Shown here: positions 1,652-15,522 of the stretch, one piece after another
Layout of the letters: each line of letters begins with the position of its first letter
How positions within the stretch are numbered: position 1 is the stretch's first letter
DNA from: Candidatus Eiseniibacteriota bacterium
GTDB lineage: Bacteria > Orphanbacterota > Orphanbacteria > Orphanbacterales > Orphanbacteraceae
Assembly (NCBI GenBank): GCA_024276995.1
Contig: JAJRWB010000042.1
Location: 1-18,647, forward strand
Reading direction: 5' to 3'
Length of the DNA stretch: 18,647 nt
Notes under the pieces: generated by a model
What the model was told of the DNA's origin: nothing
Seen by the model: the letters and a program-made list of their open reading frames with translations, nothing else
Database searches by the model: none
Made by a program: the position numbers and the translations under genes

Positions 1652-2425
1652 ATGGCCGCAACCCGGATCGTTTCGATCGTTTTTCTGCTTTCCCTCTGTC
1701 CACGCCCCGGCGACGCCGTCGCTCCTCCCTCCAACCTCGAGGTGGTCGATACGGGCGACGGGTGGGCGAGGTTTCGCTGGGATGTTTCCCCCGATCCTTC
1801 CGCCCGCGGCTATCGGCTGAAGTACTCCCTCACCCCCGGGACACACCCTTCCATGACCGACTGGAACGGCTACCCGGCGGCGTTCACCTTTTCCACCGAT
1901 GACGGAACCGACGATAACCTCGTTTACATGAATGTGTTCGATAATCATGGCGTTCCGTTCACGGCATTCGTCATGCCGCTCCGGTTTGGATGGGACGACC
2001 ATCTTACCGCGGCGGAAGTAGAAACCCTCCACGCCCACGGCCACGAAGTGGGATCCCATACAGAGGATCACAAGGCGCTTGTCCGGAACACGGCCCTCAC
2101 ACTCACTTATGTGGATACGGCCGGCTCGTGTGTCGTCGAGGTGGAGGACGACACCCTTCGAACAGTGCTGAACGGCATGGAAGAAGATGTCGAGATCCAG
2201 CTGGCGGATGCGGAAGTGCGCTACCTTTACCAGCTCGTCGCCTACCTCGACTCCCTGCCGGCGTACGAATGCACTCTGGACTCCTACCCCTGCGAGTCGG
2301 GCGTCTGTCTCTCCGACAAACTGACCGCAAGCCCACCCGTCGAAATCGCCGGTTCGCCCGCCACACTTCTCACGTCGCGGGGGTGCGACTCGACCACCAT
2401 GATCTATGAAATCAGCGAAGCCTAA
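1652..2425 (+). CDS. N-terminal fragment of interrupted deacetylase (signal peptide, FN3 half, motifs 1 and 2)
   Basis: 257 codons from the well-placed Shine-Dalgarno start to the premature TAA. If translated alone it would be exported but would lack the third catalytic motif, half of the FN3 fold and the C-terminal sorting-like domain, so it should be inactive and not surface-attached. Described in full under the parent entry. Confidence 0.7.
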   Translation: MAATRIVSIVFLLSLCPRPGDAVAPPSNLEVVDTGDGWARFRWDVSPDPSARGYRLKYSLTPGTHPSMTDWNGYPAAFTFSTDDGTDDNLVYMNVFDNHGVPFTAFVMPLRFGWDDHLTAAEVETLHAHGHEVGSHTEDHKALVRNTALTLTYVDTAGSCVVEVEDDTLRTVLNGMEEDVEIQLADAEVRYLYQLVAYLDSLPAYECTLDSYPCESGVCLSDKLTASPPVEIAGSPATLLTSRGCDSTTMIYEISEA

Positions 2426-2509
2426 GCGGAAATCGAAGCCCTGATCGCGTCTCCCTCCTATGAGTGCCGCTCCCTCGCCTATCCGTACCACGCTCATGAC
2501 CAAAGAGAG

Positions 2510-3379
2510 ATGAACGCGCTGATGGAAGCGGGATATCTTGCGGCGCGGAACGGCTCGAACGGCGGAACGTATCCCGATCGAAGCCCCGTATCCCTCAACT
2601 ATCTCGATCGCGTGAATACGTACCAGGTGCCGGTCACATGGGGACGGACGAAGAACGATTCTTCAGAAGCATTCTGCCGGCAGTGGGTGCGCAACCGGAT
2701 TGCGGCCTGGAAAGAGGACGGCGAATGGGCCGACTGGTACGACCACACCCTTGCCGACTGGGACTCGGCACACGTCGACTGGGCGATCGACGAGATCGTC
2801 TCCGACGGCGGTGTCTGGATCGCCACGTTCGGGGAGATCGCCGAATATGTCCGGCGGTTTCACGTAACGGTGGAAAACCCGGTGGAAGGATGGAACGATT
2901 CGCTAACCGCCTCTGCGCCCCTTCACGGCCTGCCGGATGACGCCTGGGTGTACGTCGTGGCGGTGGCGTACGACAGCGCCGACAACGAAAGCGCCTGGTC
3001 GAACGAGGTCGATGTCTTCGCCGATGGTTCACCTACCGGGATGCGGGTCGCGCCGGGAAACGGTGGGACCGGCAACGAATCGGGGGACGCCGGCAAGACC
3101 CCTTTCCTCGCACCCTGTCGCCCGAACCCGTTCAACCCGGCGACGGTGATTTCCTTCGTGCTCGGTGCGCGCGCGTCCGTCCACCTGTCGCTCTACGACG
3201 TGCGCGGCGCCTCCGTGGCCACCCTCATCGACGGCGAGGCGATGGCCGCCGGAGCACATGAAGTGGTATGGAACGGTCGATCCGACGGCGGACGGCCCGT
3301 ATCGTCGGGAACGTATTTCGCCACACTCCGAGCGGGTGACGGCGCGCCGGCGACGAGACGGCTCGTCGTCGTGCGGTAG
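2510..3379 (+). CDS. C-terminal fragment of interrupted deacetylase (catalytic end, FN3 half, FlgD-like domain)
   Basis: 289 codons from ATG 2510, in the same frame as the upstream fragment; the 28 codons between the TAA and this ATG also read as deacetylase (including RSLAYPYH). A weak AGAGAG precedes the ATG, so re-initiation is possible but would give a protein without a signal peptide. The end of the catalytic domain is seen as DWAIDEIVSDGGVWIATFGE, the FN3 remainder as GLPDDAWVYVVAVAYDSADN, and the C-terminal domain runs from PNPFNPATVISF to TRRLVVVR. Confidence 0.65.
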   Translation: MNALMEAGYLAARNGSNGGTYPDRSPVSLNYLDRVNTYQVPVTWGRTKNDSSEAFCRQWVRNRIAAWKEDGEWADWYDHTLADWDSAHVDWAIDEIVSDGGVWIATFGEIAEYVRRFHVTVENPVEGWNDSLTASAPLHGLPDDAWVYVVAVAYDSADNESAWSNEVDVFADGSPTGMRVAPGNGGTGNESGDAGKTPFLAPCRPNPFNPATVISFVLGARASVHLSLYDVRGASVATLIDGEAMAAGAHEVVWNGRSDGGRPVSSGTYFATLRAGDGAPATRRLVVVR

Positions 3380-4629: not shown

Positions 4630-5970
4630 ATGGAATTCAAGGAAGTGCGCGTCCCCGAGGGGGACTTGATCCGATACGAAAAGGAGAAACTGGTCATCGG
4701 AAGCCGACCGATTATCGGCGTGCTCCGGGGGGACGGTATCGGCATCGACATCACGCCGGTGATGCAGAAGGTGGTCGACGCCGCCGTGTCGAAAGCATAC
4801 GGGGGTGATCGCGCCATCGCCTGGTGCCCTCTCTACGCCGGCCTCGAGGGGCTCCGGCATTACGGCAGCGAGTTCCCCGACGAAACGGTCGAGGCGATCC
4901 GTCACCTTCGGATCGCCATCAAGGGGCCGTTCACCACGCCGATCGGCGAGGAGACCCACGTCTGCTTGAACTGCGCCCACCAGCAGTACCACGGCGGGAA
5001 GTGCGACCAGTGCGGCACGGAGGACAGCGTGTGCGACCGCTTCCGGTCGATCAACGTCCGCTTCCGCCAGCGGCTCGACCTGTTCGCCTGCGTCCGCCCG
5101 GTGCGCTACTTCGAGGGGGTGCCCGCGCCGAACAAGTACGCCGACAAGGTCGACTTCATCCTTTTCCGCGAGAACACCGAGGATGTCTACGCCGGCTACG
5201 ACTACGAAGCGGGCGGCGAGATGGCGAAGGCGATCATCGCTCTCATCAAGGAAAAGGACGGCCGCGAGATCCGTTCCGACTCCGGCATCGGCGTGAAGCC
5301 GATCTCCACGTTCGGCACGGAGCGGATCGTCCGCAAGGCGCTCGAATGGGCGATCTCGCAGAATCTCCCGTCGGTGACGATCGTCCACAAGGGGAACATC
5401 ATGAAGTTCACCGAGGGATCGTTCGCCAAGTGGGGCTATGAACTCGCCGAGCGCGAATTCGGCGACAAGATCGTTACCGAGAAGAAACTGTGGGACGAGT
5501 TCGACGGGAAGATGCCCGAAGGGAAAATCCTCCTCAAGGACCGGATCGCCGACTCGATCTTCCAGCAAATCCAGACGCGGCCCGATGAGTACAGCGTCCT
5601 CGTTCTGCCGAACCTGAACGGTGACTTCCTCTCCGACGCGGCGATCGCCCTCGTCGGGGGGCTCGGGCTCGGGCCGGGGGCGAACATGTCGAACGACATC
5701 GCCCTGTTCGAGGCGACCCACGGAACGGCGCCGAAATACACCGGCATGGACAAGGTGAATCCCGGATCGATCATCCTCTCGGCGGTGATGATGCTCAACC
5801 ACATGGGGTGGAACGAGGCGGCGGACCGGATTCTCGCCGGCATGGAGAAGTCGATCTGCGACGCGCAGGTGACGTACGACCTCGCCCGCCTGATGAAACG
5901 TGAGGGGCGTGAAGGGGTGAACGAGGTTTCCTGCTCGGGATTCGGAGAGGCGATCATCGAGAGGATGTAG
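4630..5970 (+). CDS. icd: NADP-dependent isocitrate dehydrogenase with inserted Cys-rich zinc-knuckle
   Basis: 446 residues; oxidises isocitrate to 2-oxoglutarate and CO2 in the TCA cycle, in the cytoplasm. Family residues are clear: GPFTTPIG, SINVRFRQ (Ser140, Asn142, Arg146), RPVRY (Arg156, Tyr160), FRENTEDVYAG, VHKGNIMKFTEG, NLNGDFLSDA and EATHGTAPKY. NADP preference is indicated by KY...V in PKYTGMDKV and by Tyr and Arg in VTYDLARLM, the positions that contact the 2'-phosphate in the E. coli enzyme. Compared with E. coli Icd there is an insertion of about 26 residues just before the substrate-binding serine: Cys112-x2-Cys115-x9-Cys125-x2-Cys128-x6-Cys135, a rubredoxin/zinc-ribbon-like spacing. 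AGAGGAAG precedes the start by a normal distance. Followed 107 bases later by an amino-acid dehydrogenase in the same direction. Confidence 0.93.
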   Translation: MEFKEVRVPEGDLIRYEKEKLVIGSRPIIGVLRGDGIGIDITPVMQKVVDAAVSKAYGGDRAIAWCPLYAGLEGLRHYGSEFPDETVEAIRHLRIAIKGPFTTPIGEETHVCLNCAHQQYHGGKCDQCGTEDSVCDRFRSINVRFRQRLDLFACVRPVRYFEGVPAPNKYADKVDFILFRENTEDVYAGYDYEAGGEMAKAIIALIKEKDGREIRSDSGIGVKPISTFGTERIVRKALEWAISQNLPSVTIVHKGNIMKFTEGSFAKWGYELAEREFGDKIVTEKKLWDEFDGKMPEGKILLKDRIADSIFQQIQTRPDEYSVLVLPNLNGDFLSDAAIALVGGLGLGPGANMSNDIALFEATHGTAPKYTGMDKVNPGSIILSAVMMLNHMGWNEAADRILAGMEKSICDAQVTYDLARLMKREGREGVNEVSCSGFGEAIIERM

Positions 5971-6077
5971 GTGGAGGAGTTAGGAGTGTTCGCCGGCTTG
6001 TCGGCGGGGGTGTGTGTCACCCGTGCCCAGACAGTCCTCGCTCGCCTGACGGCTCGCTGCGAAACTGCGCGCGGACG
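5971..6077 (+). repeat. Intergenic block resembling a dispersed repeat
   Basis: The gap between the two dehydrogenase genes holds a GGAGGAG near its start, a short inverted repeat (GCCGGCTTGTCGGC), and a stretch with repeated GCTCGC units (CTCGCTCGCCTGACGGCTCG). It looks non-coding and repeat-like rather than like an operon leader. Only one copy is in the window, so its repeat status is a guess. Confidence 0.25.
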
Positions 6078-7118
6078 ATGCACGATCTGATCAAAACGTG
6101 GGACGGCGAGCACGTGGTCGTCCGGTACGATCGTGAATCGGGCGCGTGGATCTTCGTCGCCGTTCATTCGACCCGTCTCGGTCCCGCCACCGGCGGCACG
6201 AGGATGAAACACTATTCCAAGCCGCGCGAGGGTCTGCGAGACGCCCTTCTTCTCTCGGAAGCGATGACGCTCAAGTACGCCGTACCACGATTCCCACGAG
6301 GGGGCGGCAAGGCGGTGATCGCCCTGCCGGACGATTTCGATCGGACCGGTCGTGACAAGCTCCTCCTTCGGTACGGCGATCTCGTTCGAAGCCTGCGCGG
6401 CGCATTCCAGACCGGACCGGACGTCGGCACCTCTCCCAAGGACATGGACATTATCGCCGAAACCGGCGCGCCCTATATCTTCTGCCGCACGCCGGACCGG
6501 GGCGGGGCCGGCGACTCCGCGCCCGCCACGGCGTTCGGTCTCTTCTGCGGAATGGAGGCGGTGTGCGAGGCCACCTTCGGGAGCGGATCACTCGCGGGAA
6601 GAAGAGTCCTCGTCCAGGGGGCGGGGAGTGTCGGCGGAAGACTGATCGATCTGCTGCTCGACGCGGGCGCCGATGTGCTCTTCAGCGACGTGAATCCCGA
6701 AACGGTGATGCGATTCCGCGACGGACGGGGCGTTCCCTTCATTCAGCCGGACGACCTGTTCAACACCGAGTGTGACATCCTCGCGCCGTGCGCCCTCGGC
6801 GGCGTACTCGACGGCAAGACGATTCCACGCCTCCGCTGCCGGGCGATCGCCGGCGCGGCGAACAACCAGCTCGCCGAACGGGCGGACGCGGAGAGGCTCC
6901 GGCAACGGGGCATCCTCTACGCACCCGACTATGTGGTGAGCGTCGGGGGCGCCATGGCGATCACCGGCATCGAGGCGATGGGGTGGACGAAAGAGGAGGC
7001 GGCCGAACGATTGCGCGGCGTGGCGGATACGGTGCGGGAGGTGTTTGCCCTCGCCGATGCGGAGGGGATCGACACGGACAGCGCGGCGCGCAAGATCGCG
7101 GAGAGGAACCTGGGATAA
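6078..7118 (+). CDS. Leucine/phenylalanine/valine dehydrogenase (Glu/Leu/Phe/Val dehydrogenase family)
   Basis: 346 residues from ATG 6078. This family reversibly deaminates a branched-chain or aromatic amino acid to the 2-oxo acid with NAD+. The match to leucine dehydrogenase is continuous: HSTRLGPATGGTRM, then MTLKYAVP and GGGKAVI with the two catalytic lysines, GPDVGTSPKDMDII with the catalytic aspartate, the Rossmann motif VLVQGAGSVGG, DILAPCALGG, AIAGAANNQL and LYAPDYVVSVGG. The exact substrate (Leu, Val or Phe) cannot be read with certainty. The frame is open 22 codons further upstream, but that part lies in the repeat-like intergenic block; MHDLIKTWDGEHVVVRYD aligns with the family N-terminus. 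The Shine-Dalgarno is weak (GCGGACG). It ends in TAA directly followed by a strong hairpin. Confidence 0.88.
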   Translation: MHDLIKTWDGEHVVVRYDRESGAWIFVAVHSTRLGPATGGTRMKHYSKPREGLRDALLLSEAMTLKYAVPRFPRGGGKAVIALPDDFDRTGRDKLLLRYGDLVRSLRGAFQTGPDVGTSPKDMDIIAETGAPYIFCRTPDRGGAGDSAPATAFGLFCGMEAVCEATFGSGSLAGRRVLVQGAGSVGGRLIDLLLDAGADVLFSDVNPETVMRFRDGRGVPFIQPDDLFNTECDILAPCALGGVLDGKTIPRLRCRAIAGAANNQLAERADAERLRQRGILYAPDYVVSVGGAMAITGIEAMGWTKEEAAERLRGVADTVREVFALADAEGIDTDSAARKIAERNLG

Positions 7119-7470: not shown

Positions 7471-7717
7471 ATGATTGCGCCTGTGATCCGATTGCCGGGG
7501 AGTGCATCGCCCCGCCGCCGGATATAGCCAGAAGGAAATATAATACATTATGATGCGAATGGGGGAGGAGGAGGGGATAAGCCTCTTGCACACGAGCCGG
7601 GATGGAAATAGTCTCTCCATGGGGATCCCGCCGGAGGCGGTGAAGGGGGGCCGGCCCGTGGCCGCCCGAAGGCCTTCCCCGATGAAATCGTCCTGTCCGG
7701 AACAAAAGAGGGGATCG

Positions 7718-7990
7718 ATGATGAAAAAGAAGTGGAAATGCGCTTGCGGTTACATTCACGACGGTGATGAGCCGCCGGAGAATTGCCCGAAGTGCGGCGC
7801 ACCGGCGAAGGTGTTCACCCTCCTCGATGACGTCGCCGCCGAACTCGTGGAGCGGTCACGCCACACGAACACCCTTCATGCGCGCCTCATCGGCCTGGGC
7901 CGCGAGATCGAACAGGTCTGCCGGGACGGCATCGCCGACGACCTCGACCCCGGTTGCGTGAAAGTCTTCCAGAAGACCCTCGGCCATTAA
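7718..7990 (+). CDS. Rubredoxin-like domain protein, apparently truncated by in-frame TAA
   Basis: 90 residues to the first TAA. Residues 5-36 form a rubredoxin/rubrerythrin-type iron or zinc knuckle: WKCACGYIHDG and NCPKCGAPAKVF, with Cys8, Cys10, Cys23 and Cys26. The first pair is CxC rather than the usual CxxC. A helical part follows (LLDDVAAELVERSRHTNTLH and onward). After the TAA (7988-7990) the same frame continues for 21 coherent codons, YEIMKLSMTEMQGHMNKGKW plus Gly, ending at TAG 8054-8056, which reads like the natural C-terminal helix. ATG 7718 follows AGAGGGG at a good distance; an in-frame ATG at 7721 is equally possible. Upstream extension to 7550 looks non-coding. A redox or metal-binding role is likely; partner unknown. 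Confidence 0.7.
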   Translation: MMKKKWKCACGYIHDGDEPPENCPKCGAPAKVFTLLDDVAAELVERSRHTNTLHARLIGLGREIEQVCRDGIADDLDPGCVKVFQKTLGH

Positions 7991-8116: not shown

Positions 8117-8163
8117 CTTATCTTCCGGCCGACTCGTGTCCGCCGCCCGGCGCTCTTTCCTCC

Positions 8164-8192
8164 TTGCCAAAAACATAGTCCCATGTTATATT
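8164..8192 (+). promoter_or_regulatory. Sigma-70 promoter for multiheme cytochrome
   Basis: TTGCCA (8164-8169), 17-base spacer, TATATT (8187-8192), in a local AT-rich patch about 50 bases before the start at 8244. This is the best canonical promoter match seen in the window. Confidence 0.55.
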
Positions 8193-8243
8193 ATAAGCTC
8201 CAGCCCGTTACAGGAACGCCCCGGCCCACACCTGGAGGATCTC

Positions 8244-9116
8244 ATGAGGACGCTGTGCCTGCTTCTCTGCCTTCTCGTTTCGGTCGCGGCGATTCCCGCC
8301 GTTTTCGCGCAAACATGCACGTTGTGCCACGGATCGGGATCCGACCCCGCGCCGCCGGTCGACACCCAGGGGAATTCGGCGACGACGTTCACCGGCGTCG
8401 GCGCGCACCAGAGCCACCTGGCGACATCCACCTGGCACGCGCAGGTCGCCTGCACCGAGTGCCATATCGTGCCCGCCCAGCCATCCGACCCGGGCCATTA
8501 TGACACGGCGCTCCCCGCCGAGCTGACGTGGGGCGCCCTGGCGACCGCCGACGGCGCCGTACCGGTGTGGGACGGTGCGACCTGCTCAAATGTTTACTGC
8601 CATGGCGCCACGCTGATCGGCGGCGGCGCCACACCGACGTGGACCTCCGTCGGATCGGGCCAGGCGTCGTGCGGAACGTGCCATTCGCTCCCGCCGGGCG
8701 CACCCCACGCACAGGATTTCAACTGCTACACCTGCCATCCCGATATCGACGCCGGATTCTCGTTCGTCACCCCGGAGCAGCATATCGACGGCGTGGTTAC
8801 CCTCGACCCGGCGACCTCGGTACCGGAGGCCCTTCCCGGGCGGTTCGTCTTCGGGCCGGTCACGCCGAACCCGTTCAACCCGACCGCCTCGATCCGCTAC
8901 GTCGTGCCGAGACCGGCGGACGTGACGATCACCGTGTACGATGCCGCCGGACGCAGACTCGCCACCCTGGCGGATGGCCATCACGGAGCGGGGGAATATG
9001 CGGCCGCCTGGAACGGAACCGATCGAAACGGAGAAGATGTTCCTTCGGGGATCTACTTCGCCCGGATCGAGGCGGGCGACTTCAGAACCACGGAGAAGAT
9101 GATTCTTCTAAGGTGA
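8244..9116 (+). CDS. Secreted five-heme c-type cytochrome (CxxxxCH/CxxCH family) with FlgD-like C-terminal domain
   Basis: 290 residues. A signal peptide ends near VFA (residue 22). Five heme-attachment motifs follow: C25TLCH, C70TECH, C114SNVYCH (the long CX4CH form), C143GTCH and C161YTCH. Mixed CX4CH and CX2CH repeats are typical of a multiheme family well known from Geobacter-type metal reducers. From about residue 203 comes a FlgD-Ig/type IX-like domain: PNPFNPTASIRY, VYDAAGRRLATL, AAAWNGTDRNG, VPSGIYFARI and KMILLR. Such a tail usually directs secretion or surface attachment in this group of bacteria, so the hemes are probably outside the cell. GGAGG at 8234-8238 fixes the ATG at 8244; the frame is open upstream but that part covers the promoter. 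Single gene between a terminator and a convergent hydrogenase operon. Confidence 0.85.
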   Translation: MRTLCLLLCLLVSVAAIPAVFAQTCTLCHGSGSDPAPPVDTQGNSATTFTGVGAHQSHLATSTWHAQVACTECHIVPAQPSDPGHYDTALPAELTWGALATADGAVPVWDGATCSNVYCHGATLIGGGATPTWTSVGSGQASCGTCHSLPPGAPHAQDFNCYTCHPDIDAGFSFVTPEQHIDGVVTLDPATSVPEALPGRFVFGPVTPNPFNPTASIRYVVPRPADVTITVYDAAGRRLATLADGHHGAGEYAAAWNGTDRNGEDVPSGIYFARIEAGDFRTTEKMILLR

Positions 9117-9229: not shown

Positions 9230-9688
9230 TCAGTCGAGTTCGTTCAGCACTCTTTCCGCCATGCCGGGAACCACCGCGGCGATCGGGTCGGACAGCTCCG
9301 TTCCGAGCTTCGAGGGAAGCGTGATCGATACCGCGAAGAGCGTGACGTCGGGCGGGTCGCCCAGAATATACGCGGCGTCGAGAAGGTCTTTCAGTCCGAT
9401 GTCGTGGGCGGTGAGCGTCGCCGGGTAGTCGCTCGAAAAGCGGGGGGTAAGACGGCGCACCGTGCCGGGCGGCCGCCCGTCCGCCGTGGCGTCGATGATC
9501 ACCGTGCGCGTGCGCGCCTGGAGCGGCTCAAGCAGGTGAAGCCCCCCGGTTCCGCCGTCGAGATACTCCGTCCCCGGCGGCGGAGGGGCGGTCCTTTCGA
9601 GATGGCGGATCACGTGCACCCCCACACCCTCATCGCCCATCAGAAGATTACCGATCCCGATGATCGTTGTGCCCGACTCTCTCGTCAA
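9230..9688 (-). CDS. hyaD: [NiFe]-hydrogenase maturation endopeptidase (HyaD/HybD family)
   Basis: 152 residues from TTG 9688. It would cut the C-terminal tail off the large subunit after nickel insertion, the last step of active-site assembly. The family start IIGIGNLLMGDEGVGVHVIR carries the nickel-sensing Glu; the second ligand region is TVIIDATADG (Asp) and the third LTAHDIGLKDLL (His). Length is normal. The TTG start is chosen because GGAGGG sits 6 bases upstream and it falls directly before the conserved glycine strand; the ATG at 9781 would add about 31 residues of cytochrome frame shadow. It overlaps the end of the cytochrome b gene by 41 bases. Last gene of the hydrogenase operon. 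Confidence 0.9.
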   Translation of the reverse strand: MTRESGTTIIGIGNLLMGDEGVGVHVIRHLERTAPPPPGTEYLDGGTGGLHLLEPLQARTRTVIIDATADGRPPGTVRRLTPRFSSDYPATLTAHDIGLKDLLDAAYILGDPPDVTLFAVSITLPSKLGTELSDPIAAVVPGMAERVLNELD

Positions 9689-10370
9689 GAACGTCCCTCC
9701 GCTCGAACTTCCACCCACCCACCATCGACGACGTCGTTCCCCGGCCTTCGACATAGTCGTGATAGAACACGAGGTAGACATGGATGATGGCGAATACGAC
9801 GAAGAACCACATGAAAACGTGGTGCCACTGCCGCACAGCGAAGTCGCCTCCCATAACGGGAACGATCCACGCGAAGAGCCCGGGCAGGAAGGACGAACTC
9901 ATGCTCGAGTAGAGCGCGAACCCGGTGATCGACTGGAAGAGAAAGACGAAAAACGTGAGAAAGTAGATCAGTCCGGCAAGTGCATTGTGACCGATCCAGA
10001 GCCTCCCTTTCAGCTTCATCTGGAGAATGTCGACGCGCAGGACCTCGAAGATCTCCTTCACCTTCGCGCCCGAGGTGGGAATGAATCGGTCCCACCGGGC
10101 GTAGCGGTTCCCGGCGAATCCCCAGTAGATCCGGACAAGGAAGTTGAAGAAGAAAATGAATGCCGTCACGAAATGGGTGAAGCGCACGATGCCGAACCAA
10201 TACTGCTGGTACGCCTCGGTGGAATGCACGATCGCAATGGGCGAGCCGATCAGGAATCCCGTCGCCGCGAGAAGAACGACACAGATCGCGTTCACCCAGT
10301 GGTAGAGCCGGACCGGGAACTCCCAGACATAGATCCGCCGGTATCCCGGTGTTTCCGCCGCAGTGGCCAT
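9648..10370 (-). CDS. hyaC: Hydrogenase b-type cytochrome subunit (HyaC-like membrane anchor)
   Basis: 240 residues from ATG 10370. It takes electrons from the hydrogenase small subunit and passes them to quinone in the inner membrane. Four membrane segments are visible (HWVNAICVVLLAATGFLIG; FTHFVTAFIFFFNFLVRIYW; GLIYFLTFFVFLFQSITGFA; MWFFVVFAIIHVYLVF). Histidines placed as heme b ligands appear in FPVRLYHWVN, RFTHFVTAF, VRQWHHVFMW and IIHVYLVFYHD. The signature RLYHWxNA at the N-terminus is typical of the family. AGGAGG overlapping the TAG stop of the large-subunit gene lies 6 bases before the ATG, showing tight coupling. It ends in TAA inside the maturation protease gene. Confidence 0.92.
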   Translation of the reverse strand: MATAAETPGYRRIYVWEFPVRLYHWVNAICVVLLAATGFLIGSPIAIVHSTEAYQQYWFGIVRFTHFVTAFIFFFNFLVRIYWGFAGNRYARWDRFIPTSGAKVKEIFEVLRVDILQMKLKGRLWIGHNALAGLIYFLTFFVFLFQSITGFALYSSMSSSFLPGLFAWIVPVMGGDFAVRQWHHVFMWFFVVFAIIHVYLVFYHDYVEGRGTTSSMVGGWKFERRDVLDERVGHNDHRDR

Positions 10371-10380
10371 GGCGAACCTC

Positions 10381-12095
<1,715 letters not shown>

Positions 12096-12096
<1 letters not shown>

Positions 12097-13208
12097 CAGG
12101 CATCACCCCCTTTTCGTTTCGCTTCCGCCGACTCGTCCATCGTCTCGTCGATCAGCTTCCGCTTGCGGATGTTCGTGGTGATCGCGTGGGCCGCCACGCC
12201 GGCCGCCGCGGCGATACCGACCGCCGTGCCGACCCTGTCGGCGGTCGACTCGATGCCGAAGCCGGGGAACGAAGCGAGGTGCCGGTAAAACGGCCCGTTG
12301 TCCCAGAAATTGTTTTCGCTGCATCCGATGCAGCCGTGTCCCGACTGGATCGGGTAGCTCGTTCCCTCGTTCCAGCGGGTCACCGAGCAGGCGTTGTACG
12401 TCACCGGACCGCGGCAACCCATCTTGTAGAGACAGAAGCCTTTGCGCGCTTTCTCGTCGTCCCACGCCTCGACAAACATCCCGGCGTCATAGTACGGCCG
12501 GCGATAGCACGTGTCGTGCACGCGGCGCCCGTAGAACTCTTTCGGCCGTCCCTGGCTGTCGAGTTCGGGAATCCGCCCGAAGACGAGGATGTGGGTGACC
12601 ACGCCGGTCATCACGTCGGCGATCGGCGGGCAGCCGGGCACGTTGATCACCGGCTTGTCGACGAGCTTGTGGATCGGCGTGGCGTTCGTCGGGTTCGGGT
12701 CGGCACTTTGGATACAGCCGTTCGACGCGCAGCTTCCCCACGCGATGATCGCCGCGGCGTCCTTCGCCGTCTCCTGCAAGATGTCGTTCGCGGAGCGCCC
12801 GCCGATGGTGCAGTAGATGCCGTCGTCGAGCATCGGCACCGAACCCTCGACGAGGAGAATATACTCGCCCGCGTACTTCGTCATCGTGTCGCGGAGACAC
12901 TTTTCCGCCTGATGGCCGGCGGCCGCCTGGAGCGTTTCGGAGTAGTCGAGCGAAAGGGTGTCGAGAAGAACGTCGGCGACGATCGGGTGCGATGAGCGGA
13001 TGAACGATTCACTGCAGCAGGTGCACTCCTGGAAGTGGAGCCACACCACCGGCGGCCGGTGCTTCGTCTCGAAAGCCTCGACCACCGATCCGATTCCGGA
13101 CGCCTCGATTCCGGCGAGCGCGGCGGCGAAACTGCAGAACTGAAGGAATTCCCTGCGCGAGTATCCCTTCTGTTCCATCGCCTGCCACAGAGAAGGCATC
13201 TTTTCCAT
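12096..13208 (-). CDS. hyaA: [NiFe]-hydrogenase small subunit, oxygen-tolerant (group 1d) type with Tat signal
   Basis: 370 residues. It carries three iron-sulfur clusters that lead electrons from the active site to cytochrome b. A Tat signal is clear: SRREFLQFCSF then a hydrophobic run. The proximal site has six cysteines: ECTCC (Cys62, Cys64, Cys65), GSCASNGC (Cys160, Cys165) and PGCPP (Cys193). Cys64 and Cys165 are the two extra ones that form the [4Fe-3S] cluster of oxygen-tolerant enzymes such as E. coli Hyd-1 and the Ralstonia MBH. The distal cluster ligands are His231, Cys234, Cys259 and Cys265; the medial ones Cys274, Cys293 and Cys296. A C-terminal helix (VGTAVGIAAAAGVAAHAI) and basic tail anchor it in the inner membrane. 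The start follows GGGGGAG by 5 bases. First gene of the operon. Confidence 0.96.
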
Positions 13209-14136: not shown

Positions 14137-15522
14137 ATGCAGGACAATCCGTATAAAGGCTACCGCCCGCCCGCGCTCGACAAGCTGAAAGAGTGCGGCG
14201 CCCGCGTGTGGAGCGATGTCGAGATGGAAACCACCGGCGGCGTCTTCTCGGGCATCATTCTGCCGCGCGCCGAAACGGCCGACGCCGAGCACATCGTGCT
14301 CAAGATGCGCACCGGCTACAACATCGGCATCCGCGCCGACCGAATCGTATCGATGACCGTGCGCGGCGTGAAGGAAGCGCACTACCGGATCCCCGAGCAG
14401 GAGTTCCCCTACGACGACAGCAACCCGAATGTGACGCTCCTCGGCACGGGGGGGACGATCGCGTCGCGCCTCGATTACCGCACCGGCGCGGTGATCCCCG
14501 CGTTCACGCCGGGCGAACTGTACGGCGCGGTGCCGGAGCTGGCGGACGTGTGCAACCTGCACACGGAAAAACTGTTCGGCATTTTCAGTGAGAACATGGG
14601 GCCGAAACAGTATATCGCCCTCGCCGAAGCGATCGGCAGGGAAATCGAAAAGGGGGTCGCGGGGATCATGATCGGTCACGGCACCGACACGATGCACCAC
14701 ACCGCCGCGGCGCTCTCCTACATGGTGCAGGACTCGCCCGTGCCGATCGTGATGGTCGGTTCGCAACGCTCGAGCGATCGCCCGTCGTCGGACGCCGCGT
14801 TCAATCTCCGCTCGGCGGCATACGCAGCGGCGCACGGCGAAATCGCCGAGGTGATGGTCTGCATGTTCGGCCCGACGAGCGACTCGTACAACCTCCTCCA
14901 CCGCGGGACGCGGGTGCGCAAGATGCACTCGAGCTACCGCTCCACGTTCCGCACCATCGGCGACATTCCCCTCGCCACGGTGACGCCCGACTCGCTCCGC
15001 CCGCTGCGCGAAGGCGTTTACCGGAAACGCGCCGGGCGCGCCGTCCGCATCGTTCCCGCGTTCGAAGAGAAGGTCACCATGGTCTACTACTACCCGAACA
15101 TGAAGCCCGACATCATCGACTCTCTCGTCGACAACGGCTATCGCGGCATCGTCATCGCCGGCACCGGTCTCGGCCACGTGAACCGTCCGCTTTACGACGC
15201 GCTCCGTCGCGCCCACGATCGCGGGGTCGCCCTCTACATGACGGTGCAGACGCTCTGGGGGTTCGTGCAGATGTATGTCTACGAGACGGGCCGCGAGATC
15301 ATGGACCTCGGCGTCGTGCCGTGCGACAACATGCTCCCAGAAGCTGCATACATCAAGCTCGGCTGGGCGCTCGGTCAGACCGACGATCTCGACGAGGTGA
15401 AGAAGATCATGCTCACCTCCGTGGCGGGGGAGATCACCGAGCGCGAACCGCACGACGGCTACCTCGTCCTCCAGGGGGGCCTCCCCGAGGTGCAGGACTT
15501 CCTGAAGAATCACATGATGTAG
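14137..15522 (+). CDS. gatD: Glutamyl-tRNA(Gln) amidotransferase subunit D (archaeal-type GatD)
   Basis: 461 residues. GatD is the asparaginase-like subunit of the GatDE enzyme, which frees ammonia from Gln or Asn to turn Glu-tRNA(Gln) into Gln-tRNA(Gln). The GatD-specific N-terminal domain (about 17-85) is present, with GVFSGIILPR and LKMRTGYNIGI, and separates it from plain L-asparaginases. The asparaginase part starts with LLGTGGTIASRLDYRTGAV (nucleophilic Thr107), then IMIGHGTDTMHHTAAALSY (Thr183, Asp184) and TRVRKMHSSYRSTFR with the likely catalytic Lys262. Length fits the family. GatDE is the normal archaeal system; bacteria mostly use GatCAB. The partner GatE is not in the window. GGAG lies 7 bases before the ATG. 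Confidence 0.88.
   Translation: MQDNPYKGYRPPALDKLKECGARVWSDVEMETTGGVFSGIILPRAETADAEHIVLKMRTGYNIGIRADRIVSMTVRGVKEAHYRIPEQEFPYDDSNPNVTLLGTGGTIASRLDYRTGAVIPAFTPGELYGAVPELADVCNLHTEKLFGIFSENMGPKQYIALAEAIGREIEKGVAGIMIGHGTDTMHHTAAALSYMVQDSPVPIVMVGSQRSSDRPSSDAAFNLRSAAYAAAHGEIAEVMVCMFGPTSDSYNLLHRGTRVRKMHSSYRSTFRTIGDIPLATVTPDSLRPLREGVYRKRAGRAVRIVPAFEEKVTMVYYYPNMKPDIIDSLVDNGYRGIVIAGTGLGHVNRPLYDALRRAHDRGVALYMTVQTLWGFVQMYVYETGREIMDLGVVPCDNMLPEAAYIKLGWALGQTDDLDEVKKIMLTSVAGEITEREPHDGYLVLQGGLPEVQDFLKNHMM

What the first reader, a model, noticed from the sequence alone, without database searches (positions are those of the whole stretch)
4936..5060. Zinc-knuckle inserted beside the active site of isocitrate dehydrogenase
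Seen: about 26 extra residues with Cys112-x2-Cys115-x9-Cys125-x2-Cys128 and Cys135, placed between GPFTTPIG and the substrate-binding SINVRFRQ. In E. coli Icd this loop carries the serine that AceK kinase phosphorylates to switch the enzyme off. All catalytic and NADP residues are kept, so the enzyme should be active. Inference: a bound metal or a redox-sensitive Cys cluster may gate substrate entry and replace phosphorylation as control. I do not know a described Icd with such an insertion.
Basis: partly seen in the sequence, partly recalled or inferred. Interest (0 to 1): 0.7.

Follow-up and report, generated by a model that had tools for sequence, protein, structure and literature searches.

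The report
Isocitrate dehydrogenase with zinc-ribbon active-site loop
A common TCA-cycle enzyme, in a scattered set of uncultured bacteria from about ten phyla, carries a small extra hairpin with four cysteines (probably a zinc-binding ribbon) right beside its active site; it looks like a real, conserved sub-type that most likely stiffens the loop covering the active site rather than switching the enzyme on and off.

Summary
The NADP-type isocitrate dehydrogenase at 4630-5970 carries 31 residues (107-137, nt 4948-5040) in place of the usual two-glycine linker of the 'phosphorylation loop', with C112-x2-C115-x9-C125-x2-C128. It is not unique: a scan of about 85,000 species genomes found 50 such enzymes, and whole-genome searches found more, all in uncultured lineages. 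With the insert columns removed, they form one clade (SH-aLRT 100, long stem) in which ten phyla are interleaved. In loci found without requiring cysteines, 27 of 29 keep all four; two related ones keep the insert but have lost the motif. The insert is modelled confidently as a hairpin whose nearest solved shapes are zinc-ribbon/rubredoxin knuckles. Cys135 is not conserved. Replacement of AceK control is not supported: there is no isocitrate lyase in this genome, the active-site serine is kept, and AceK is rare in ordinary relatives too. Best explanation: a structural zinc ribbon that pre-orders the active-site lid, comparable to zinc and zinc-free adenylate kinase lids. Metal content and effect on activity are untested. 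I found no description of it in the PDB or open-access library searched. New variant of a known kind, interest about 0.5.

The parts
4630..5970 (+). icd: NADP-type (subfamily I) isocitrate dehydrogenase, 446 aa plus stop
4948..5040 (+). Insert, residues 107-137 (EETHVCLNCAHQQYHGGKCDQCGTEDSVCDR), replacing the two-residue linker of ordinary IDH (E. coli G109-G110)
   Evidence: predicted hairpin 110-112/134-136, block pLDDT 81-93
4963..4974 (+). First knuckle C112-L-N-C115
   Evidence: both Cys kept in 27 of 29 unconditioned loci
5002..5013 (+). Second knuckle C125-D-Q-C128
   Evidence: both Cys kept in 27 of 29 unconditioned loci
5032..5034 (+). Cys135: Cys in 18 of 48 clade members, otherwise mostly Thr or Ala; not part of the conserved motif
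5041..5073 (+). F138-R-S140-I-N142-V-R-F-R146-Q-R: isocitrate-binding segment; S140 corresponds to E. coli Ser113
   Evidence: alignment; S140 and N142 48 of 48
4927..4947 (+). P100-F101-T102-T103-P104-I105-G106: loop before the insert; F101 (E. coli Leu103) is specific to the insert clade
   Evidence: F 46 and Y 2 of 48, against L 63 of 64 ordinary

Best explanation
The protein is a genuine TCA-cycle NADP-isocitrate dehydrogenase of a distinct, horizontally spread sub-type. A small zinc-ribbon hairpin is built into the phosphorylation (Cd) loop. Two CxxC knuckles hold one Zn2+ (tetrathiolate), which locks the hairpin. The hairpin grows from the two strands directly before the isocitrate-binding serine, so it most likely acts as a rigid lid or brace that pre-orders the loop touching nicotinamide ribose and isocitrate, a loop that is mobile in ordinary IDHs. 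The role is structural (stability, active-site closure), not an on/off switch, and as a side effect it would block AceK-type kinases. Shown: the insert, its conservation, its single clade, its position in sequence, the confident hairpin prediction, the kept catalytic residues, and the TCA gene context in some members. Inferred: metal identity, lid function, effect on catalysis.
For: Four Cys kept in 27 of 29 loci found without a Cys requirement. V111, L113, Q118, Q119, D132 and R137 are identical in all 48 clade members, though no search required them. One clade with SH-aLRT 100 and stem length 0.63 when insert columns are left out, with ten phyla needing 17 changes on the tree. Model pLDDT 88, 93 and 87 for blocks 111-120, 121-130 and 131-140, with hairpin strands 110-112/134-136. 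The insert folded alone is nearest to L40e ribosomal zinc ribbons, the LapB rubredoxin-like domain, RNA polymerase subunit L and MCM zinc ribbons (weak, E 0.2 and up, Z up to 3.8). In ordinary IDH this loop carries Ser113, is disordered in the S. tokodaii apo enzyme, and contacts nicotinamide ribose and isocitrate (PMC6313988). Citrate synthase and aconitase genes are next to the insert icd in L067, L093, L063 and L074. About 40 further clade-specific residues include both flanks, F101 and I141. L102/L103 keep the insert but lack the Cys motif; adenylate kinase lids likewise occur as tetra-Cys zinc forms and hydrogen-bonded forms (PMC4227292).
Against: No metal measurement or solved structure. 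The model's alignment was shallow (30 sequences) and three loops near the active site score below pLDDT 50. Nothing tested shows that the ribbon changes loop mobility. The near-complete Cys conservation and long stem would also fit a regulatory role.
Confidence: 0.6

Rival explanations
1. Redox or zinc switch: oxidation of the thiolates or zinc release disorders the loop and shuts off isocitrate binding, tuning NADPH output to redox state.
For: CxxC zinc sites can act as redox switches in bacteria (review PMC3184428, title and abstract). The site lies close before the substrate-binding serine. The Cys are nearly invariant.
Against: The extra Cys135 is not conserved. Two members keep the insert without the Cys motif. 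No conserved redox partner gene lies next to icd. Nothing shows reversibility.
Confidence: 0.17
2. Protein-protein docking module: the ribbon is a handle for a partner such as citrate synthase or aconitase, or for higher oligomers, with no direct effect on catalysis.
For: Zinc ribbons often mediate contacts (general knowledge). Citrate synthase and aconitase genes are adjacent in four loci. H117, Q118 and Q119 are nearly invariant.
Against: In most loci neighbours are not conserved. The position inside the active-site loop makes a purely remote docking role less likely.
Confidence: 0.12
3. Replacement of AceK phosphorylation as the control of the glyoxylate branch point.
For: AceK is absent from 50 of 50 insert genomes. 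In the window's phylum the only genome with AceK has ordinary IDH.
Against: AceK is absent from 55 of 60 ordinary genomes too (p = 0.06). A clear isocitrate lyase is missing from the window's genome and 39 of 47 insert genomes, although ordinary relatives do not differ significantly (p = 0.12).
Confidence: 0.05
4. Rubredoxin-like iron site for electron transfer or iron sensing instead of zinc.
For: Some nearest shapes are rubredoxin-like (LapB, rubrerythrin), and CxxC pairs bind Fe as well as Zn.
Against: The canonical rubredoxin CPxCG knuckles (general knowledge) are not present (the motifs are CLxCA and CDxCG), and the reaction needs no electron-transfer centre (general knowledge). Sequence alone cannot separate Fe from Zn.
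Confidence: 0.06

Closest known systems
Subfamily I NADP-isocitrate dehydrogenase (E. coli Icd, A. fulgidus 2iv0)
   Same: Whole-length homology (best PDB match 2iv0, E 4e-134; fold match Z 49.8), with substrate and NADP residues conserved
   Different: 31-residue Cys4 insert in the phosphorylation loop and about 40 clade-specific residues
B. subtilis-type IDH with an AceK-excluding insert
   Same: An insert said to restrict kinase access to the phosphorylation site (PMC3590139)
   Different: Different position and no such Cys insert: the B. subtilis enzyme 1hqs aligns to the window protein with best stretch 138-446, and the profile of this insert matches it only over the 12 residues before the insert
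Zinc / zinc-free adenylate kinase lid
   Same: A tetra-Cys zinc motif in an active-site lid in some members, replaced by other residues in others (PMC4227292)
   Different: Unrelated enzyme; the comparison is by analogy only
Zinc ribbons / rubredoxin-like knuckles (ribosomal L40e, LapB C-terminal domain)
   Same: Two CxxC knuckles on a short hairpin; nearest shapes of the insert
   Different: No significant sequence or fold score; used here as an insert inside an enzyme loop

Membership tests
Subfamily I NADP-isocitrate dehydrogenase | Scores over a curated NADP-IDH family cut-off | tested here: met
   NF005425 523 bits against 490. TIGR00183 just misses (556 against 567); the match is in two stretches either side of the insert
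Subfamily I NADP-isocitrate dehydrogenase | Isocitrate and metal-binding residues (E. coli S113, N115, R119, R129, R153, Y160, K230, D283, D307, D311) | tested here: met
   Window S140, N142, R146, R156, R180, Y187, K254, D308, D332, D336, all invariant in A1
Subfamily I NADP-isocitrate dehydrogenase | NADP-specificity residues (E. coli K344, Y345, V351, Y391, R395) | tested here: met
   Window K369, Y370, V376, Y416, R420
Subfamily I NADP-isocitrate dehydrogenase | Isocitrate dehydrogenase activity with NADP+ | not testable with these tools
   Needs the purified protein
AceK-regulated IDH | AceK kinase/phosphatase gene in the genome | tested here: not met
   No PF06315 match in G000 (96% complete) or in 50 insert genomes
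AceK-regulated IDH | Phosphorylatable serine in the loop | tested here: met
   S140 in 48 of 48; it is also a substrate-binding residue
Zinc-ribbon / rubredoxin-like fold | Two CxxC knuckles on a beta hairpin | tested here: met
   Sequence and predicted strands 110-112/134-136
Zinc-ribbon / rubredoxin-like fold | Significant similarity to a known zinc-ribbon family or structure | tested here: inconclusive
   Pfam matches only weak and scattered; Foldseek best E 0.2, VIA Z 3.8, top rows zinc ribbons
Zinc-ribbon / rubredoxin-like fold | Bound zinc | not testable with these tools
   Needs metal analysis or a crystal structure

The most novel reading that the evidence does not exclude
A horizontally spread family of IDHs in which a zinc-thiolate ribbon in the active-site loop senses redox state or zinc supply and gates isocitrate entry, a post-translational control of the TCA cycle without a kinase.
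Probability: 0.15. Interest if true: 0.8.

Novelty: new variant of a known kind. Interest (0 to 1): 0.5.

Why it matters
IDH is one of the most studied enzymes, and its phosphorylation loop is a textbook case of covalent control. A clade found here only in uncultured bacteria has rebuilt exactly that loop around a probable metal site, kept it across about ten phyla, and in one lineage lost the cysteines while keeping the insert. It offers a natural set (ordinary, Cys4, Cys-less) for testing how lid order in this loop controls catalysis and stability. It also warns that IDH curation can stumble on it: this protein falls just below the TIGR00183 cut-off.

Tried and rejected
Conserved gene neighbourhood as a clue to function: most loci share no neighbours; only four have aconitase and citrate synthase next to icd. 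AceK and isocitrate lyase association: the trend is not significant. Viral contigs: no match. Pfam and PDB profile searches with the insert: only weak, scattered zinc-finger matches. Direct measurement of Cys-Cys geometry: no model coordinates were found in the Python box. Single origin including the Elusimicrobia variant L090: compatible with the tree but unsupported (SH-aLRT 25). Literature search for such an IDH: nothing found in the open-access library; most subscription papers are not held, so earlier description is not excluded.

Full report
OBSERVATION. The ORF at 4630-5970 (+) encodes 446 aa and is a prokaryotic NADP-type isocitrate dehydrogenase. The solved prokaryotic relatives align in two pieces, 1-106 and 138-446, so residues 107-137 (nt 4948-5040) are an insert. 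Compared with ordinary enzymes (TTPVG-GG-FRSLN), 31 residues replace two. The isocitrate- and NADP-binding residues are present.

HOW WIDESPREAD. In the window's phylum (7 genomes held), G000, G003 and G006 have the insert; G001, G002, G004 and G005 have ordinary IDH. One DNA-pattern scan of about 85,000 species genomes gave 53 stretches, of which 50 encode IDH with the insert (L077, L085 and L094 are chance). Record titles and genome groups place them in Acidobacteriota, Planctomycetota, Krumholzibacteriota, Myxococcota, Gemmatimonadota, Fermentibacterota, Hydrogenedentota, Eisenbacteria, Latescibacterota and Elusimicrobia, and all titles name uncultured genomes (nearly all marked MAG). The 68-aa probe found the insert in 12 of 194 matching Acidobacteriota genomes, 4 of 240 Gemmatimonadota, and 9 of 13 matching (80 searched) Krumholzibacteriota. 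It is a minority, patchy sub-type.

ASCERTAINMENT. The pattern scan demands the four Cys and fixed spacing, so it cannot prove their conservation. Of 29 insert loci found by protein similarity, 27 have all four Cys. Columns that no search required are also invariant in 48 of 48: V111, L113, Q118, Q119, D132, R137. Cys135 is Cys in only 18 of 48. L102 and L103 (Krumholzibacteriota) keep the insert; L102 reads EETHVCLATGRQGTREELIGKHGCRPEDVTARFRS: one residue longer, with the CxxC pairs gone. L117 is one residue shorter; L090 (Elusimicrobia) is a divergent form.

EVOLUTION. With insert columns removed, the insert IDHs (48 plus 2 Cys-less) form one clade, SH-aLRT 100, stem length 0.63; the Cys-less pair is nested inside it. 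L090 lies near but outside; one origin including it is compatible but unsupported (SH-aLRT 25). Within the clade, 46 rows in 10 phyla need 17 phylum changes against a minimum of 9, which suggests horizontal transfer, although many inner branches are weakly supported. The window's enzyme and those of G003/G006, from the same family, are not sisters in that tree. The clade differs from ordinary IDH at about 40 further positions, including both flanks of the insert: F101 (E. coli Leu103) and I141 (Leu114).

STRUCTURE. AlphaFold2 on 30 clade sequences gave mean pLDDT 84, pTM 0.87. The insert is confident (blocks 111-140: 88, 93, 87), with strands 110-112 and 134-136 closing a hairpin, while three other loops (219-221, 256-261, 365-373) fall below 50. 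The whole model matches solved IDHs (Z 49.8, rmsd 4.1 A over 397 residues with 2iv0). The insert folded alone (pLDDT 68) has no significant match, but the top rows are zinc-ribbon or rubredoxin-like: ribosomal L40e, LapB, rubrerythrin, RNA polymerase subunit L, MCM.

FUNCTION. The same enzyme step is implied by the kept active site and by aconitase and citrate synthase genes next to icd in L067, L093, L063 and L074 (clusters; families named for L067, L093 and L074). The loop concerned carries Ser113 in E. coli, is disordered in S. tokodaii apo IDH, and touches nicotinamide ribose and isocitrate when closed (PMC6313988); phosphorylation of Ser113 blocks isocitrate binding (PMC3590139). A metal-locked hairpin there should restrict the loop's motion; this is inference.

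CONTROL BY PHOSPHORYLATION. AceK is absent from G000 and from 50 of 50 insert genomes. It is also absent from 55 of 60 ordinary-IDH genomes of Acidobacteriota and Gemmatimonadota (p = 0.06). A clear isocitrate lyase (E below 1e-40) was found in 8 of 47 insert genomes and not in G000, against 17 of 60 ordinary ones, or 19 of 60 if two weaker matches are counted (p = 0.12 with 19). The data do not support the claim that the insert replaces AceK control.

WHAT IS KNOWN. No solved IDH found here carries the insert. Seven literature searches of the open-access library found no description. The nearest analogies are adenylate kinase lids, which occur in tetra-Cys zinc and hydrogen-bonded forms (PMC4227292), and ribosomal protein S4, with horizontally exchanged zinc and zinc-free forms (PMC3087516).

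VERDICT. A real, conserved, apparently undescribed sub-type of subfamily I IDH with a probable zinc ribbon in the active-site loop. A structural lid is the best-supported explanation (0.6); a redox or zinc switch remains possible (0.17).

Noticed in passing
window 1652-3376 (+): Polysaccharide deacetylase (PF01522) and a C-terminal FlgD-Ig/sorting-like tail lie in one frame, split by an in-frame TAA at 2423-2425: broken gene, assembly error or two genes.
   Followed up: partly
window 14137-15519 (+): Archaeal-type GatD (TIGR02153 510 bits against 324; GatD_N domain) in a bacterium. The same genome also has a GatE-like protein over its cut-off (G000:C72, 447 bits), which the other six genomes of the phylum lack.
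   Followed up: partly
window 9230-13208 (-): [NiFe] hydrogenase cluster: small and large subunits, b-type cytochrome, maturation protease.
   Followed up: no
window 8136-9113 (+): Protein with several CxxCH haem-like motifs and a C-terminal sorting-type tail.
   Followed up: no
window 6012-7115 (+): Glu/Leu/Phe/Val-type amino-acid dehydrogenase directly downstream of icd on the same strand; not conserved beside insert icd elsewhere.
   Followed up: partly
window 7550-7987 (+): Small protein with a rubredoxin-like domain (PF21349).
   Followed up: no
L002 1489-2787 (-), G000:C12: Second protein of the isocitrate/isopropylmalate dehydrogenase family in the same genome, below every curated cut-off, with its own Cys-free extra stretch of about 16 residues at the same loop.
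   Followed up: partly
L102 and L103 (Krumholzibacteriota genomes G151, G152): Insert kept, CxxC motif lost, one residue longer: a natural Cys-less variant nested in the clade.
   Followed up: yes
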